Shown in pieces: positions 29,025-63,107 of a stretch of 64,000 nt of DNA. Origin of the DNA: Clostridia bacterium (GTDB taxonomy: Bacteria > Bacillota > Clostridia > Oscillospirales > Acutalibacteraceae); assembly GCA_017502085.1 (NCBI GenBank), contig JAFVVQ010000057.1, positions 32,976 through 96,975 on the forward strand, written 5' to 3'. Numbering within the stretch: the first letter of the stretch is position 1; every line of letters starts with the position of its first letter. Under the pieces are notes generated by a model, which saw only the letters and a list, made by a program, of their open reading frames with translations, did not search any database and was not told the origin of the DNA. The translations under genes and the position numbers were made by a program.

Positions 29025-29059
29025 ACGGGCTGTCTTTATCGCAAGACAGCCCGTTTTTT
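29025..29059. terminator. Terminator between NSS transporter and degV
   Basis: ACGGGCTGTCTT/AAGACAGCCCGT (29025-29036 and 29043-29054) followed by TTTTT. Confidence 0.85.
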
Positions 29060-29897
29060 ATGCAATGATATGAATGCCGAAAGCTCTCGGTGCACTGTGA
29101 ATGCTGATGATACTTCCGTTTTCGGCAGTGATGATTTTTTCAAATCCCGCGTTGCGGAGTTTTTCGGCAGCAAAATCAAGTTCGGTTTTGCTGATTCCCG
29201 AATGATAAATGAATGCGGCGGATTTGTCGGCAGAAGGAAATTTTTCAAGAATACTTTCGGTATATTTTACTCTTGCCGCATCGGATTTGCCCTTGAATTT
29301 TTCAAGGATTTCGATTCTGCCGTCAACCATACCCGCACAGGGCCTTATCGAAAAAAGATTTGCACCCAGAGCGCTTACTGCAGAGCATCTGCCTCCGAGA
29401 CGGAGAAATTCAACGCTCTCAAGCAGATAAGATACTCGTGTTTTCGGTATCAGTTTTTCGGTTTCAGCGCAGATATCGTCAGCGGAAAGACCTTTGTCAC
29501 GCATTGCGCAACTTTTCAGCGCAAGTAATCCTATGCCGCCTCCGAGATTTTTTGTGTCGATAACGTGGACACCGTTGAACTGATTTGCGGCAATGACGGC
29601 GTTTCGGTGAGTCGATGAGAGCAGAGAGCAGAATGAAAGATGAATAACATCTGCTCCGTCCGAAGTAAATGCCGAAAAATATTCTGCATATTCATTAGGT
29701 GAAACAGCAGAAGTTTTCGGAATTTTGCCTGTTTTTTCAACATATTCAAATACGCCTTTTCCGTTAATGTCAATGCCGTCACGGAGTTCTTTCCGATCTG
29801 CTATAACGTACATCGGCATAATTTCAATACCGTTTTCTCCGGCAAAATTTTTCGGCAGATCGGCGGCGCTGTCAACGCTTATAATAATCTTCTTCAA
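29058..29897 (-). CDS. DegV family fatty-acid-binding protein
   Basis: 279 residues with a TTG start; GGAGGG stands 8 bases upstream. DegV/FakB proteins bind a fatty acid and present it to the FakA kinase to make acyl-phosphate. N-terminal SVDSAADLP, PMYVIADRKELRDGIDI, PKTSAVSPNEYAEYF and IDTKNLGGGIGLLAL are typical. No fakA is seen nearby. Monocistronic and convergent with the NSS transporter. Confidence 0.92.
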   Translation of the reverse strand: MKKIIISVDSAADLPKNFAGENGIEIMPMYVIADRKELRDGIDINGKGVFEYVEKTGKIPKTSAVSPNEYAEYFSAFTSDGADVIHLSFCSLLSSTHRNAVIAANQFNGVHVIDTKNLGGGIGLLALKSCAMRDKGLSADDICAETEKLIPKTRVSYLLESVEFLRLGGRCSAVSALGANLFSIRPCAGMVDGRIEILEKFKGKSDAARVKYTESILEKFPSADKSAAFIYHSGISKTELDFAAEKLRNAGFEKIITAENGSIISIHSAPRAFGIHIIA

Positions 29898-29940
29898 AAA
29901 AATCCCTCCGCAGTTAGTTTAACCGCAGAGGGATATATTA

Positions 29941-31770
29941 TTATCTTTTCAGAGTATCGATGAATTCAAAGAGTTCGACGTAGAATGCGGGAGTTTTCTG
30001 CGATGCGCCGGAGTCAAACGGTGCAAGACCGATAACCGTTCCGTGGTGACCTGTGCGGGTTTCTGAAATGTTCCATATGCCCTTTTCGATGTTTTTCGGA
30101 TCAACCTTACGAACGTCGGAATTGAGGTAATTGCCCTCTTCATCGTTGGGCTTCTGCGCAGAAACAACGCTGACAAGACCGTCGTTTTCCTGCCACGTTT
30201 CGTCGATGACGATTCCGCCGTTGGTTGTGCCTGTGTATGTTCCCATACCAAGAGCGGGTGCCTGAAGAACAACCAGCATATCAAGGGTCGGAATCTGACC
30301 GTTGTTGAGGTTGGTTTTTCTTGTTGCACTGTAAGCGAATGAGAAATAATATACGCTGTCAACCGTTTCGATTTTGTTGTTGAGTGCCGCCGCACCGTCG
30401 GGTGAGAGGTCGTAGGCGGCGTGATCGTTACCCGAAGCGATAACTTTATCAATCGAACTGCGCAGAGAATTTCCTCCCGATGAACTGATTCCGAAATGAT
30501 CGAGCATCAGATCGTATGTGCCGCTGGCAGGTTCAGTCAGATTGTTTGCCAGCATACAGAATGATATGAGCAAATCGGTTGTGCTGACAATATCGGGCTG
30601 AGAAAGAATATCATCCATATTGAGGAATGCCGAAACGAATCCGAGGAGTTTACTGCCCGAAGTGATTTTACCGATGCTTGAAAGCAACGAGCCTGAATTA
30701 TTGATGATTTCAGTGAGTGATGAGCCGTTATGCGGAGCGCAAAGAGTTGTCACACTGTATACCCAGTCGCCTTTTCCGCCTTCAAAAAGCGGAGAAACTT
30801 CGTTGCCCGAAATTTCTTTTTCTGCTTCGCTTCCGTATTCGAGGAGCGAGGTGAGAAGTCTGATTGTCGCACCGCCGAAGCTGTGACCGACAAGGTTGAT
30901 CCGCTGAAGCTGACCGCCGTTGATTTTCTGACCCCAGTTTTCAATGAGCGGTTCGGAATAAGTTCTGCCGAAGCGCTGATGGTTATGCTCTTTTGAGTGA
31001 GCTTCACCGTAGTCTACCTGAGTGCCCGTGAGCTGAGCGTAAAGTTCGCAGGCTCTGTCCCATGCGCTCGAAACGGGACCTACACTGGGAGTATAAACTT
31101 CAAAGCCTTTCGCTCTGAGCTGAGCGGTGAGGCTTCCCGAGGTTGAGCCCCAATAGGGGACAACACCATTGAGTCCTGAATCTTCGCCCCAGCCTCCGAG
31201 ACCGTGGACAAGCACGAAGGGATACTGGACTCTGCCGCCGTTGAGAGACCACCACGCATTTTTGATCTGACCCCAGTAAAGAGGGATACAGAGGGTTGCA
31301 ATCATAATGCAGAAAACGAGAATCCATGCAATCAGGGATTTCGGATTGAATTTTTTGCCGACAGCATTTCCGTTGCCGCTCGGTGCGGGAGCAACGGGCG
31401 GAGTAACGGTGTTTGAATTATCTGAATAATCATCGCCGTCATTGGCGGTAAAGTTGTTTTCGGGAGTGTATTCGGGAACGTATTCGGGGATTGGTGCGTC
31501 GGTATCAACGCCCGATAAATCGATTTCCGCAGTATCATACATATCCGATGAAGTTGACGGCGGAGCGGGTGTCGGATCGGGTTTTAAAAGGTAATCGGTT
31601 GAAACACCGAAAATATTGCTTATCAGGAGAATCTTATCGATTTCGGGCACGGCAGCACCTGATTCCCATCTTGAAACGGATTGACGGGAAACACCAAGCA
31701 TTTCCGCAAAAGTTTCCTGCGATAAGCCTCGTTCTTTTCTTAGGTTTAAAATTCTGTCTGAAATAGCCAT
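29941..31770 (-). CDS. XRE DNA-binding domain - transmembrane - family I.5-like lipase fusion
   Basis: 609 residues. Residues 5-62 are an XRE HTH (GLSQETFAEMLGVSRQSVSRW). A Pro/Asp-rich linker (65-140) leads to one transmembrane helix (146-168), and 180-609 form a lipase like those of Staphylococcus and Geobacillus (family I.5). Visible are the oxyanion-hole HGLGGWG, nucleophile S297 in GHSFGG, the Zn-loop pattern DYGEAHSKEHNHQRFG, the acid NDGLVSVVS and a C-terminal GHHG. The topology would put DNA binding inside and lipase outside. AGGAGG lies just before the ATG at 31770. Its own promoter is present. The architecture is read directly; coupling of the two activities is inference. Confidence 0.88.
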   Translation of the reverse strand: MAISDRILNLRKERGLSQETFAEMLGVSRQSVSRWESGAAVPEIDKILLISNIFGVSTDYLLKPDPTPAPPSTSSDMYDTAEIDLSGVDTDAPIPEYVPEYTPENNFTANDGDDYSDNSNTVTPPVAPAPSGNGNAVGKKFNPKSLIAWILVFCIMIATLCIPLYWGQIKNAWWSLNGGRVQYPFVLVHGLGGWGEDSGLNGVVPYWGSTSGSLTAQLRAKGFEVYTPSVGPVSSAWDRACELYAQLTGTQVDYGEAHSKEHNHQRFGRTYSEPLIENWGQKINGGQLQRINLVGHSFGGATIRLLTSLLEYGSEAEKEISGNEVSPLFEGGKGDWVYSVTTLCAPHNGSSLTEIINNSGSLLSSIGKITSGSKLLGFVSAFLNMDDILSQPDIVSTTDLLISFCMLANNLTEPASGTYDLMLDHFGISSSGGNSLRSSIDKVIASGNDHAAYDLSPDGAAALNNKIETVDSVYYFSFAYSATRKTNLNNGQIPTLDMLVVLQAPALGMGTYTGTTNGGIVIDETWQENDGLVSVVSAQKPNDEEGNYLNSDVRKVDPKNIEKGIWNISETRTGHHGTVIGLAPFDSGASQKTPAFYVELFEFIDTLKR

Positions 31771-31794
31771 AACTGACCTCCTGTCTGTGAAGCC

Positions 31795-31823
31795 ATTATA
31801 TCCTAATGCGGCAATAAATTCAA
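31795..31823 (-). promoter_or_regulatory. Promoter of the XRE-lipase gene
   Basis: On the minus strand TTGAAT (31823-31818), 17 bases, TATAAT (31800-31795). A palindromic CCTAGG and a TGTAAACC sequence lie just upstream (31827-31838) and could be an operator. Confidence 0.65.
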
Positions 31824-31889
31824 TCACCTAGGGTTTACATTCAGAAATTTTTTTAAAATTATTTATATTGTAAAGCGGGATTTACAAAA

Positions 31890-31922
31890 AAATCGGCTGT
31901 AAACCGAAGTTTACAACCGATA
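31890..31922 (-). terminator. Terminator of the secreted hydrolase gene
   Basis: Minus strand ATCGGTTGTAAACTTCGGTTTACAGCCGAT then TTTTTTTG. Confidence 0.8.
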
Positions 31923-59489: not shown

Positions 59490-60080
59490 TCAGAATTTTC
59501 TGCGAAGCTCAACTACCTTGCCGATAACGGTAACGGGCAGACTTTCGATTTCTGATTTCGAAAATATCATCGGTTCATATGCCGAGTTTTCAGACACAAG
59601 CACAATGCTTGTGTCTTTTTTTATTAATTTTTTGACTGTCGCATCATTTCCGTTGACAAGAATGACGGCAATTTCACCGCTTTCAGCATCAGGCTGACGG
59701 CGAACTATGACTGTGTCACCCGCCTGAAACATCGGGAACATACTGTCGCCTTTTATTTTGAGACCGAAATATTCGCCTCTTGATGCCATATCGGCACTGA
59801 TTTCTTCGTAATCCAATATATCTTCCACAGCCTCCATAGGTATGCCTGCCCTTACGTAGCCGAGAACGGGAACAAGCACCGTGCTGCCGATATCTTCGCC
59901 GCCGATGAGCGTACCTACCGATACACCCAGAACGCCTGCAAGGATTTTGAGGCTTTCGTTGTCAGGTGATGTTCTGCCGTTTTCCCACTGACTGACTGCA
60001 GTCTGATGAACTCTGCAAAGAGAAGCCAGTTCACTCTGGGACAGACCTTTTTGTTTTCTTAATTCCCTTATAATATTCAT
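59490..60080 (-). CDS. XRE-S24 self-cleaving repressor (CI/LexA type)
   Basis: 196 residues. N-terminal XRE HTH (GLSQSELASLCRVHQTAVSQW, about 12-33) and C-terminal S24 peptidase-like fold. The probable cleavage site is A78-G79 in YVRAGIP, nucleophile S113 in KGDSMFPMF, and the Lys general base around K150-K151. Such repressors autocleave when RecA is activated, relieving a phage or mobile-element promoter. GGAGG lies before the ATG. It is divergent from the regulator gene at 60377 and probably controls it. Confidence 0.92.
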   Translation of the reverse strand: MNIIRELRKQKGLSQSELASLCRVHQTAVSQWENGRTSPDNESLKILAGVLGVSVGTLIGGEDIGSTVLVPVLGYVRAGIPMEAVEDILDYEEISADMASRGEYFGLKIKGDSMFPMFQAGDTVIVRRQPDAESGEIAVILVNGNDATVKKLIKKDTSIVLVSENSAYEPMIFSKSEIESLPVTVIGKVVELRRKF

Positions 60081-60204
60081 TTTTATCCCTCCGCAATGCT
60101 GTCGGAGAGCAGGAACGGGCTAACCCGAATCCGCAAAGCCGTTCTTTGGCGTTACGGCAGTCTCCGCAGACAATCCGCATAATATAAAACATTTCACGTT
60201 TTAT

Positions 60205-60233
60205 ATTATTAGCTATTCTATTGAAAATGTCAA
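60205..60233 (-). promoter_or_regulatory. Promoter of the S24 repressor gene
   Basis: On the minus strand TTGACA (60233-60228), 17 bases, AATAAT (60210-60205). Confidence 0.6.
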
Positions 60234-60262
60234 GAAAAATTTTAAAAATAATAAAAATACTC

Positions 60263-60291
60263 TTGACAACAGAACAAATGTTCTCTATAAT
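60263..60291 (+). promoter_or_regulatory. Consensus promoter with embedded LexA-type box for the lysis cassette
   Basis: TTGACA at 60263-60268 and TATAAT at 60286-60291 with 17 bases between. The spacer holds AGAACAAATGTTCT (60271-60284), matching GAAC-N4-GTTC. Both hexamers are perfect, so basal activity must be held off by a bound repressor: LexA or the S24 protein. Confidence 0.8.
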
Positions 60292-60376
60292 CAATAGCGT
60301 CACTATTAAAAGTGACGGATTGCAAAGCTGCTTGCGGCAGCAGAGCAACAGAAGTTGCTTGAAAAGGAGGCTTGAA

Positions 60377-61015
60377 ATGAACGGCAACGAAACAGATGAA
60401 GAGATTTATTTTCTGTATCCCGACGAAAATGAGATTAAGGCGGCTCAGCTTGCCTGCTGCGGCAGATGCTGCGATGCCTGTGAAACGCCTGCGGAATATG
60501 CATGGCGCAAACGCGGGGTGGATATGGCGATTCTGCTGGAGTCGGCGATTGAAAACGAACTCAGCGAGAACGAAAGACAGATGATAAGGGCTAAATGGTT
60601 TGACGGTCTGACTCCGCTTGAAATTTCAAAGAAGAACGGTGTGAGCAAATCAAACGTCAGCATGACACTTGTCAGAGCGCAGGAAAAACTTCGTCACGCG
60701 CTCAGCTATGCGGTGAGATATCAGCATATGCTTGCGGATGAATCGGCATTGCCTTTGATTCTCGGCAGAGCAAGGGTGATTGCCGCCGCAAGGAATTATT
60801 CAGGCGAAAGCTTCCACGAAAGAATCCGCAATCTTCGTCTGGCGCAGAATATCTCGAAAACGTCTCTTTGCAGAGCATCGGGAATAGCGGTCAGAAGAAT
60901 TTCGCTGATAGAAAAAGGTGAAACCGAGCCTGTAATCAACGAAATCATTGCTCTGTCCGAATTTTTCGGTGTGAGTGCAGATTATATCATAAAAGGAGAA
61001 AACAATGACAGATAA
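60377..61015 (+). CDS. Two-headed regulator: sigma-70 region 4-like plus XRE HTH
   Basis: 212 residues. A cysteine cluster (C27, C28, C31, C32, C35) may bind metal. Residues 60-115 resemble sigma region 4 (LSENERQMIRAKWFDGLTPLEIS, GVSKSNVSMTLVRAQEKL), and 147-207 an XRE HTH (RLAQNISKTSLCRASGIAVRRISLIEKG, FFGVSADYIIKG). It might act as an activator for the cassette. AAGGAGG lies before the ATG. The leader (60292-60376) contains the hairpin CGTCACT/AGTGACG. Confidence 0.75.
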   Translation: MNGNETDEEIYFLYPDENEIKAAQLACCGRCCDACETPAEYAWRKRGVDMAILLESAIENELSENERQMIRAKWFDGLTPLEISKKNGVSKSNVSMTLVRAQEKLRHALSYAVRYQHMLADESALPLILGRARVIAAARNYSGESFHERIRNLRLAQNISKTSLCRASGIAVRRISLIEKGETEPVINEIIALSEFFGVSADYIIKGENNDR

Positions 61016-61262
61016 CAATTCACTTTATGAACTCGGTCTCGAATATGAGAGTGCCGCAGAAAAGGTAAAGGAGCGTATTGAGTTGAAAAGAAATAAGCTC
61101 CGCTCACTGAGAAACAGCATATGTTCCAATGAAGCGTACGTGCTCAAGAGTGAACTCAATACGCTCTACAAGGAATACCGTGAAGCAAAAAACACTGCAG
61201 AATATCTTAAAAATTATTATTCCGAAAACAGTACGGTTGCGTGGGGAGGTATATTGACATGA
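61005..61262 (+). CDS. Small coiled-coil protein of the phage-derived cassette
   Basis: 85 residues, highly charged and helical (KVKERIELKRNKLRSLRNSI, LKSELNTLYKEYREAKNTAEYLK). No family recognised. AAAGGAG precedes the ATG, which overlaps the preceding gene by 11 bases; its stop overlaps the next start by four. Confidence 0.65.
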   Translation: MTDNNSLYELGLEYESAAEKVKERIELKRNKLRSLRNSICSNEAYVLKSELNTLYKEYREAKNTAEYLKNYYSENSTVAWGGILT

Positions 61263-62347
61263 GTATTATTTTAAAGGCGGTTATAGACGAAAACAGAAGC
61301 CTTGTAGTCAGCCCGTCCGACGGGTATTCGGGCGAACATAATTCCGAAATGCTTGAGATCGATATCGGACCTTTTGCTGACGGAGACTATGATTTTTTTA
61401 TTATCAATTTTGAGAATTTTGCAACGAAAGGCAAGTTTACTTCAAACGTAATCCGAACCGAAAACGACACCCCGTCATATATTGATAACGGGGTGATTTT
61501 TTGCCCCGTAACGGCTCAGATGACGGCATCGGGCAGACTCAGAATTCAGCTTGAGGCACACAAAAGCACCGAAAACGGTGCAATGGTCAGAAAATCTTCA
61601 GTGGCGGAGCTTTCATTCGGGGAGTCGCTTATGGGTGCGCAGGATATGATGGATTCATCCGATCCTGTCCATGAGAGACTCGATACCGTTGAAGAAAGAC
61701 TCGACGGCATCGATGCACAGAATTTCGGAGCATCAATTGACAGTATCAGTAAAAAGGTTGACGTTCTTGAGGGGAACATTCAGAATACCGTCTCTGACGT
61801 TGAGGATGCTCAACGCAGAATTGCTGCCGTTGAGGATTACAAAATCAGTCAGACTTTCGAGGATTTTGAGGAAAGAATCACGGTTCTCGAAGAGAAACCC
61901 GATGGACTTGACTCGTTGCCCGTTGCGTCGGAAAATACGCTTGGCGGCGTGAAAGTCAATAATATACGTTACGAAATCGGAACAGATGAAAACGGTGCGC
62001 TCAAACTTATCTACGGCAACATGAATAAACATTTAATCGGTGCATTGGTCGTTCTTTCGATGCTTTATCAGGCTTCAGTCACCGAGGTGTTTGCGTCGGA
62101 ATCGGAAGAAGAAGTTTCTTCGTGGCTGTTTGAAAACAGTATGAATATTCTGAGTAACAATATTTGTTCGGTGGCTTTTGTTATGTTTGGCAAAGGTCAG
62201 GTGCAGTATTATGATGAGAATTTTTTTGTAAAGGATTTTGAAGCATTACCTAATGTTATTTATACTGTGAAGATGGTTGACGGTGTGATGACCATTACAC
62301 CTTATTTTGGAACCGAATGGAGAAAACTCATAACGGAGGGAATCTGA
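61259..62347 (+). CDS. Phage tail/baseplate-like protein
   Basis: 362 residues. The N-terminal 120 residues resemble phage baseplate upper (BppU-like) domains. A coiled-coil region (about 140-225, LDTVEERLDGIDAQ, VLEGNIQNTVSDVEDAQRRIAAVE) and the tail-fibre-like motif PVASENTLGGVKV follow, then a 110-residue C-terminal part of unknown fold. GGGAGG lies 9 bases before the ATG at 61259. No other structural phage gene is present. Confidence 0.6.
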   Translation: MSIILKAVIDENRSLVVSPSDGYSGEHNSEMLEIDIGPFADGDYDFFIINFENFATKGKFTSNVIRTENDTPSYIDNGVIFCPVTAQMTASGRLRIQLEAHKSTENGAMVRKSSVAELSFGESLMGAQDMMDSSDPVHERLDTVEERLDGIDAQNFGASIDSISKKVDVLEGNIQNTVSDVEDAQRRIAAVEDYKISQTFEDFEERITVLEEKPDGLDSLPVASENTLGGVKVNNIRYEIGTDENGALKLIYGNMNKHLIGALVVLSMLYQASVTEVFASESEEEVSSWLFENSMNILSNNICSVAFVMFGKGQVQYYDENFFVKDFEALPNVIYTVKMVDGVMTITPYFGTEWRKLITEGI

Positions 62348-62348
62348 C

Positions 62349-63107
62349 TTGGCTAAAAAGATATGTATAATCGTCGGTCACGGTAAGTCTGCGGGCGGCG
62401 GTTATGACAGCGGTGCCGTCAGCCGCGACGGCAGATATCACGAATTCAGAATTGCGAGAGAAATTGCAAAATATGCGGCGGATTATCTCGGATGTGACCT
62501 GATGAACTATGACGGCTCGATTTATCTGACGGACAGAATCAAAGCTGTCAACAAAGCGGATTATGATTTCATTGCAGAGATTCATCTCAATGCGGGCGGC
62601 GGAAAGGGTACGGAGGCTTATTATTACAACGGATCGCCGACGGGACTGCGTACTGCAAAGGCGGTGACGGATGAAATTGCAAAAGAATTCTCAATCCGCA
62701 ACCGAGGTGCGAAGGTGCGTCTGAACAAAGACGGAAAAGATTATTTTGCAATAATCCGAGATACAAAACCAACGGCAATCCTCATCGAAACCGTGTTTAT
62801 CGATAATGACGACGAACTCAGAGTAATTGTTACCGAAGACGGTCAGAAACGTTGCGGCGAAGCAATCGGCAGAGCGCTTGAATCAACTCTGGGTTCAAAG
62901 ACGGTCAACGGTGATTTCAAAGTTGAAATCAAGGCAGAGAGTCTTTATATCCGTGAAGGTGCAGGCACAGGCTACAAGTCTGTCGGGATTGTAAAAAAAG
63001 GCGAAATTCATTCAATATCCGTAACGGATTCCTTCGGCGGCTGGGGCAGACTTTCCGACGGCAGGGGCTGGATTTCGCTCAATTCAAAATATATCAGGAG
63101 GTTATGA
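62349..63107 (+). CDS. N-acetylmuramoyl-L-alanine amidase (endolysin-like) with SH3b domain
   Basis: 252 residues with a TTG start; GGAGGG lies upstream. It cuts the amide bond between MurNAc and the stem peptide. Amidase_3 motifs: H11 in IIVGHGKS, E32 in HEFRIAREI, H79 in IAEIHLNAGG and the catalytic Glu in ILIETVFIDN. Residues about 190-252 form an SH3b wall-binding domain (SLYIREGAGTGYKSVGIVKKG, WGRLSDGRGWISL). No signal peptide, as expected for release by the holin. Confidence 0.92.
   Translation: MAKKICIIVGHGKSAGGGYDSGAVSRDGRYHEFRIAREIAKYAADYLGCDLMNYDGSIYLTDRIKAVNKADYDFIAEIHLNAGGGKGTEAYYYNGSPTGLRTAKAVTDEIAKEFSIRNRGAKVRLNKDGKDYFAIIRDTKPTAILIETVFIDNDDELRVIVTEDGQKRCGEAIGRALESTLGSKTVNGDFKVEIKAESLYIREGAGTGYKSVGIVKKGEIHSISVTDSFGGWGRLSDGRGWISLNSKYIRRL

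What the first reader, a model, noticed from the sequence alone, without database searches (positions are those of the whole stretch)
29941..31770. A DNA-binding domain, a membrane helix and an extracellular lipase in one protein
Seen: an N-terminal XRE HTH (5-62), a single transmembrane helix (146-168), and a complete-looking family I.5-like lipase with GHSFGG and the DYG-H-H zinc-loop pattern. Known: one-pass XRE-membrane regulators exist in Firmicutes, and I.5 lipases are normally secreted enzymes. Inference: the lipase may act as sensor or effector linked to transcription control at the membrane, for example sensing lipid substrate. I know of no described system of this kind.
Basis: partly seen in the sequence, partly recalled or inferred. 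Interest (0 to 1): 0.75.

Follow-up and report, generated by a model that had tools for sequence, protein, structure and literature searches.

The report
Membrane lipase fused to DNA-binding repressor
One gut-bacterial protein joins a gene-control domain inside the cell to what looks like a working fat-splitting enzyme outside it, and the DNA sites it probably binds recur before its own gene and before a few genes for surface proteins.

Summary
29941-31770 (-) is one intact gene: XRE HTH, one membrane helix, complete zinc lipase of the I.5/I.6 type. It is no joining artefact: 22 intact fused genes in at least four genera of one Clostridia family; the lipase tree fits one fusion and two later HTH losses. 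The HTH is under purifying selection; its recognition helix, the catalytic triad and the zinc ligands are invariant in 19 of 19.

New here: a palindrome TGTAAAC-N4-GTTTACA lies upstream of 18 of 21 fused genes, and all 21 have it or a half-site near the -35; 0 of 5 relatives that lack the HTH have it. The same palindrome precedes genes of two families (here VELPY, DUF5104) in two genera and a third family in one. So the protein probably binds DNA, controls itself and a small regulon, more likely as a repressor. That the lipase senses lipid is inference.

It is a transmembrane transcription regulator by architecture; I found none described with a lipase outside. Against: 18 of 22 palindromes have a T-rich stretch behind them and could also be terminators. 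Nothing was tested at the bench.

The parts
29941..31770 (-). HTH - membrane helix - lipase fusion gene (609 aa plus stop)
31573..31770 (-). XRE/HTH_3 DNA-binding domain, residues 1-66; recognition helix G26-V-S-R-Q-S-V-S33 invariant in 19 of 19 fused proteins
31351..31572 (-). variable linker, residues 67-140 (mean pairwise identity 0.21; 24-79 residues in the 19)
31276..31335 (-). single predicted transmembrane helix, about residues 146-165
   Evidence: hydropathy only
29944..31230 (-). lipase domain, residues 181-609; S297/D530/H576 and zinc ligands D238/H258/H264/D449 invariant in 19 of 19
31898..31915 (-). candidate operator O1 distal, TGTAAACTTCGGTTTACA; also inside a terminator-like hairpin 31892-31921
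31869..31886 (-). candidate operator O1 proximal, TGTAAATCCCGCTTTACA
31821..31839 (-). candidate half-site O2, TGTAAACCCTAGGTGATTG, overlapping the predicted -35
31795..31823 (-). predicted promoter TTGAAT-17-TATAAT
31776..31782 (-). ribosome-binding site AGGAGGT
29902..29934 (-). terminator-like hairpin between the fusion gene and the DegV gene

Best explanation
A one-component, membrane-bound transcription regulator that is also an enzyme. The cytosolic XRE domain binds TGTAAAC-N4-GTTTACA operators at its own promoter (O1 upstream, a half-site O2 near the -35) and at promoters of a small set of genes: the family here called VELPY and DUF5104 genes (both with a hydrophobic start by eye, so probably membrane or exported proteins), and in the window's subclade a small cysteine-rich protein gene next to a CapA-like gene. 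Operators over the predicted -35 or start point favour repression. A signal helix places a catalytically complete zinc lipase outside the cell. I infer that the state of the lipase (substrate bound, lid open, or amount in the membrane) changes DNA occupancy through the single helix. Supported by comparison: architecture, constraint on the HTH, operators, regulon. Inferred: direction of control, topology, sensing.
For: 22 intact fused genes; tree of 64 lipases puts all 22 with 5 HTH-less relatives under one node (98/95), needing three changes, which one gain and two losses satisfy. HTH mean identity 0.75, equal to the lipase core, against 0.21 in the linker; HTH dN 0.02-0.16 with dS 0.58-2.41 in 7 of 8 pairs, the eighth (L072/L073) nearly identical. 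O1 exact in 18 of 21 fused promoters, O2-like in 16 of 21, at least one in 21 of 21; resampled means 0.004 and 0.09 of 21. 0 of 5 HTH-less relatives of that clade and 0 of 4 other lipases of the own genome have O1. In 37 same-genus genomes exact O1 is in 15 of 17 with the gene (one broken) and 3 of 20 without (Fisher p 1e-5, not corrected for kinship). The own genome has 4 exact sites in 2.63 Mb, 2 of them here. In another genus (G417) 4 of 5 sites lie before the fusion gene (about 285 bp from its ATG), a DUF5104 gene and two VELPY genes. O1 follows a predicted -10 directly in L105 and L101. None of 13 other HTH places matched in the own genome has a similar recognition helix; best identity 44%.
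Against: No binding, expression or enzyme data. The one-mismatch motif is at background (17 places against 18 control); the half-site alone is unspecific; across 200 family genomes 77 have an exact match, all but four of them without a fusion that I know of, so the motif is informative only by position. L072, L073 and L121 lack O1. G564's site is 247 bp from the ATG. Two non-lipase sites (G020, G022) lie between convergent genes and two in G564 look like dispersed repeats; the site in G018, a genome without the gene, has no clear target. 18 of 22 O1 copies have a T-rich stretch behind them on the gene strand, 9 of 22 on the other. Three changes on the tree could also be several gains. Helix and topology rest on hydropathy. 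Promoters and start points are predictions. Most genomes are metagenome assemblies.
Confidence: 0.58

Rival explanations
1. Autoregulated surface lipase without sensing: the HTH only sets the dose of the membrane lipase and its co-regulated proteins; the lipase passes no signal.
For: Catalytic and zinc residues are invariant in the fused lipases just as in the 35 ORFs without HTH, so selection on enzyme activity alone explains the outside domain; operators at its own promoter. The linker varies freely in length and sequence, which does not favour tight mechanical coupling. The HTH was lost at least once while the membrane lipase stayed.
Against: It leaves unexplained why the DNA-binding part is kept in the same chain as the enzyme in 22 genes of several genera, and why sites recur at other genes.
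Confidence: 0.28
2. The operators belong to another XRE regulator, and the HTH of the fusion is not the binder.
For: 13 other HTH places were matched in the own genome, which is 84.5% complete.
Against: Sites accompany the fusion gene in several unrelated neighbourhoods, are missing in 5 of 5 HTH-less relatives, and none of the 13 HTHs has a similar recognition helix.
Confidence: 0.07
3. The palindromes are terminators of upstream genes, not operators, and the HTH is an inert inside tail or anchor.
For: The distal window copy lies in a 13-pair terminator-like hairpin with a T-run; 18 of 22 O1 copies have at least 5 T in some 8-base stretch behind them on the gene strand, against 9 of 22 on the other strand.
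Against: The arms keep their sequence, not only pairing; only 4 exact copies in the own genome; some copies sit on the predicted -35 or start of other genes; the same half appears as O2 without a hairpin; the HTH is under strong purifying selection. A T-rich stretch between O1 and the -35 could also be a promoter upstream element.
Confidence: 0.07

Closest known systems
Transmembrane transcription regulators (TTRs; Demey et al. 2023, PMC10269533; abstract, Results part 1 of 2 and a word search seen)
   Same: DNA-binding domain plus a membrane helix in one chain; single-pass is the commonest form there (56%).
   Different: The words lipase, hydrolase, enzym, XRE and HTH_3 do not occur in that main text. 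Here the outside part is a complete lipase, and site positions suggest repression.
Lipase families I.5/I.6 (Geobacillus T1/L1, staphylococcal lipases; Pfam Lip_C)
   Same: Sequence, catalytic triad, zinc site.
   Different: Fused to an HTH and a membrane helix; two calcium ligands of T1 lipase not kept.
Trigger enzymes such as PutA, enzyme and repressor in one protein (passage in PMC6978683)
   Same: Enzyme and transcription repressor in one chain.
   Different: Here the enzyme would be on the other side of the membrane from the DNA; regulation by activity untested.
RodZ-type HTH-membrane proteins (recalled)
   Same: N-terminal HTH, one helix, outside domain.
   Different: No RodZ domain among the families; conserved candidate operators argue for real DNA binding.
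BlaR1/MecR1 (recalled)
   Same: An enzyme-derived outside domain as a sensor for gene control.
   Different: There the sensor acts through a separate repressor; here repressor and enzyme are one chain.

Membership tests
Transmembrane transcription regulator | DNA-binding domain in the chain | tested here: met
   HTH_3 E 8e-17; constraint on it
Transmembrane transcription regulator | at least one transmembrane region | tested here: met
   hydropathy peak in 19 of 19 fused proteins and in L119, L121, L124; no dedicated topology program
Transmembrane transcription regulator | controls target genes from the membrane | tested here: inconclusive
   operators by comparison only
Lipase family I.5/I.6 | Ser-Asp-His triad | tested here: met
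   19 of 19 fused
Lipase family I.5/I.6 | zinc site Asp-His-His-Asp | tested here: met
   19 of 19; site from passages of PMC6566366
Lipase family I.5/I.6 | calcium site Glu360/Asp365 of T1 lipase | tested here: not met
   Glu360 position is T, K, N or Y and Asp365 position A or gap in the 19; neither Glu360 nor Asp365 is present in the 35 ORFs without HTH either. Hence filed only as a divergent relative; I.5 versus I.6 left open
Lipase family I.5/I.6 | lipase activity | not testable with these tools
   -
Trigger enzyme | enzyme activity governs regulation | not testable with these tools
   -
RodZ | HTH_25 plus DUF4115 (recalled) | tested here: not met
   neither is among the 21 families

The most novel reading that the evidence does not exclude
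A transmembrane trigger enzyme: fat splitting at the cell surface is read out directly on the chromosome by the same polypeptide, which lifts repression of itself and of a small set of surface proteins that share its operator.
Probability: 0.35. Interest if true: 0.86.

Novelty: new variant of a known kind. Interest (0 to 1): 0.7.

Why it matters
How a regulator in the membrane passes an outside signal to DNA is called poorly understood in the survey of these proteins (abstract of PMC10269533). Here the outside domain is an enzyme of well-known structure with an obvious one-residue knockout (S297), the candidate operators are defined to the base, and relatives that lack the HTH also lack the sites, a natural control. 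This makes signal transfer from an enzyme through one helix to DNA directly testable, and it gives two uncharacterised protein families (DUF5104 and VELPY) a first regulatory context in gut Clostridia of ruminants.

Tried and rejected
DegV (FakB-like) gene downstream as a partner for released fatty acids: adjacent in 5 of 19 fused loci, all in one synteny group, and a terminator-like hairpin lies between; not pursued.

Genome-wide regulon search with one mismatch or with the half-site alone: both at background.

Of 200 family genomes 42 have a lipase match at 1e-30. I looked at one N-terminus in each of 11 of these (G417 and the ten fetched), and had G000 and G022 from before; so 5 fused of 200 is a lower bound.

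The two long open frames that I had not opened (G013, G030) were checked at the end: membrane lipases without HTH and without sites.

Papers: the listings show no lipase fused to a DNA-binding domain; DUF5104 occurs in no held paper. Most subscription papers are not held. VELPY profile against solved structures: nothing below E 0.2; Pfam only sub-threshold chagasin-like matches.

Rows dropped: L082 has no upstream sequence (left out). L081_59 (part of the broken copy) and L032_13 lacked the trimming motif in both trees; the script missed L122, and adds it with L142 and L143. With them the tree needs three changes, not the two. L081_59 is among the 35 ORFs without HTH. Helical phasing of O1 against the promoter (24 centres, R 0.61 at 10.5 bp; 14-site subset p 0.018, but 0.15 at 10.0 bp) was found after the fact on related sequences; a hint only.

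Full report
The gene. Window 29941-31770 on the minus strand encodes 609 residues without interruption. Pfam gives HTH_3 at 9-61 (8e-17) and Lip_C at 182-359 with a second stretch (7e-54); NCBIfam's best lipase model is the staphylococcal YSIRK lipase, below its cut-off. The nearest solved chains are lipases aligned in two collinear blocks. One hydropathy peak lies between HTH and lipase.

It is a real, inherited fusion. Whole-genome and contig searches led to 19 intact fused genes, the window's included: 16 genomes of the same genus and three named records. Three more are in other genera of the family (G417, G578, G564). One further copy (G028) is broken by a TGA. Of 37 same-genus genomes 17 have the gene, G028 included. 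In a maximum-likelihood tree of 64 lipases the 22 fused ones and five without HTH form one group (98/95). The label needs three changes, which one gain and two losses satisfy: L122 (G520), and the group of L123 (G504), L025 (G031), L142 (G013) and L143 (G030) (an earlier tree without three of these needed two). Several gains are not excluded, though the HTHs are alike. The five keep a membrane helix or hydrophobic stretch before the lipase. Most other lipases of these genomes start with a signal-peptide-like stretch or none.

Both ends are under selection. Among 19 fused proteins mean identity is 0.75 in the HTH, 0.21 in the linker and 0.75 in the lipase core. The recognition helix and all seven triad and zinc residues are invariant; the calcium ligands of T1 lipase are not kept (ligand positions in passages of PMC6566366). 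Synonymous changes far outnumber amino-acid changes in the HTH in 7 of 8 pairs; the eighth has almost no change. So the HTH seems to be used as an HTH and the enzyme kept as an enzyme.

Candidate operators. Upstream of the ATG the window has TGTAAATCCCGCTTTACA (31869-31886) and TGTAAACTTCGGTTTACA (31898-31915), and TGTAAACCCTAGGTGATTG (31821-31839) over the predicted -35. With up to one mismatch the window holds six matches at three places against 0.19 expected, none of 100 shuffles reaching six. The own genome holds four exact places in 2.63 Mb, these two and two others; with one mismatch it is at background. Across fused genes the palindrome is present in 18 of 21 and the half-site in 16 of 21 by a fixed pattern, at least one in all 21; L072, L073 and L121 have only the half-site. 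In G417 and G564 the palindrome is about 285 and 247 bp from the ATG. The sites accompany the gene in several unrelated neighbourhoods and are absent within 330 bp upstream of the 5 HTH-less relatives of the group and of 4 other lipases of the own genome. In the genus, 15 of 17 genomes with the gene and 3 of 20 without it have an exact site.

Regulon. Counting by hand, with a contig-end duplicate merged and sites with A at position 7 or T at position 12 left out, the same-genus genomes with the gene hold 31 places: 17 at the fusion gene and 14 elsewhere. Of the 14, five precede a VELPY gene (my label; a hydrophobic start, then a domain of unknown fold), one more lies at a contig end where synteny suggests the same, four precede a small cysteine-rich protein gene beside a CapA-like gene, one a DUF5104 gene, one a LytTR gene, and two lie between convergent genes. 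One VELPY place (G028) has a DUF5104 gene next in line. Same-genus genomes without the gene hold one such place (G018), without a clear target. VELPY genes also lie 14 to 854 bp downstream of the fusion gene in L049, L076, L077 and L087. In the genus of G417, four of five sites lie before the fusion gene, the adjoining DUF5104 gene and two VELPY genes; the fifth is inside a gene. This repeat in a second genus is the strongest support for a regulon. In G564 the two further sites look like a dispersed repeat.

Direction. In the fusion promoters the half-site lies at or over the predicted -35 of a near-consensus promoter; by eye the same holds in 5 of the 12 target promoters printed (three VELPY, two DUF5104). 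In the four cysteine-rich targets the palindrome lies at the likely -35; in L105 and L101 it follows a -10 directly. These positions favour repression. Spacing is partly helical, a weak hint of co-operative binding.

Limits. Nothing was measured. Of 22 palindromes at fusion genes, 18 have a T-rich stretch behind them on the gene strand and 9 on the other; the window's distal copy sits in a terminator-like hairpin. They may serve twice, or the stretch may be a promoter upstream element. Motif counts lose meaning outside the genus (77 of 200 genomes). The step from lipase state to DNA is inference, rated at about one in three.

Known kinds. By architecture it is a transmembrane transcription regulator; the survey of these (PMC10269533; abstract, Results part 1 of 2 and a word search seen) does not mention lipases or hydrolases in its main text. 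As enzyme and repressor in one chain it resembles PutA (passage in PMC6978683). The listings of paper searches showed no lipase fused to a DNA-binding domain.

Noticed in passing
29058-29897 (-): DegV-family gene (FakB-like, fatty-acid binding by recall) just downstream, behind a terminator-like hairpin; adjacent only in the window's subclade (5 of 19).
   Followed up: partly
L120 (G300:C4:18500-23500): An HTH-membrane helix-surface repeat protein with a TGTAAAC half-site-like sequence upstream: the lipase fusion may be one of several XRE proteins with different outside domains.
   Followed up: no
L109, position 4023 (G012): A palindrome TGTAAAAATGTTTTTACA lies 91 bp before another XRE gene with several membrane helices, in a genome without the lipase fusion.
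   Followed up: no
L047/L081 (G028): Fusion gene broken by one TGA while its palindrome and a VELPY-DUF5104 locus with a palindrome remain.
   Followed up: partly
G322, G462, G562, G568: Ten lipase matches each, which is the number of candidates scored, so at least ten: a marked expansion; the rows listed do not reach the HTH part of the query.
   Followed up: no
window 59490-63107: A LexA-like XRE gene, a gene with a second HTH and an amidase-like gene (judged by eye), possibly phage-derived.
   Followed up: no
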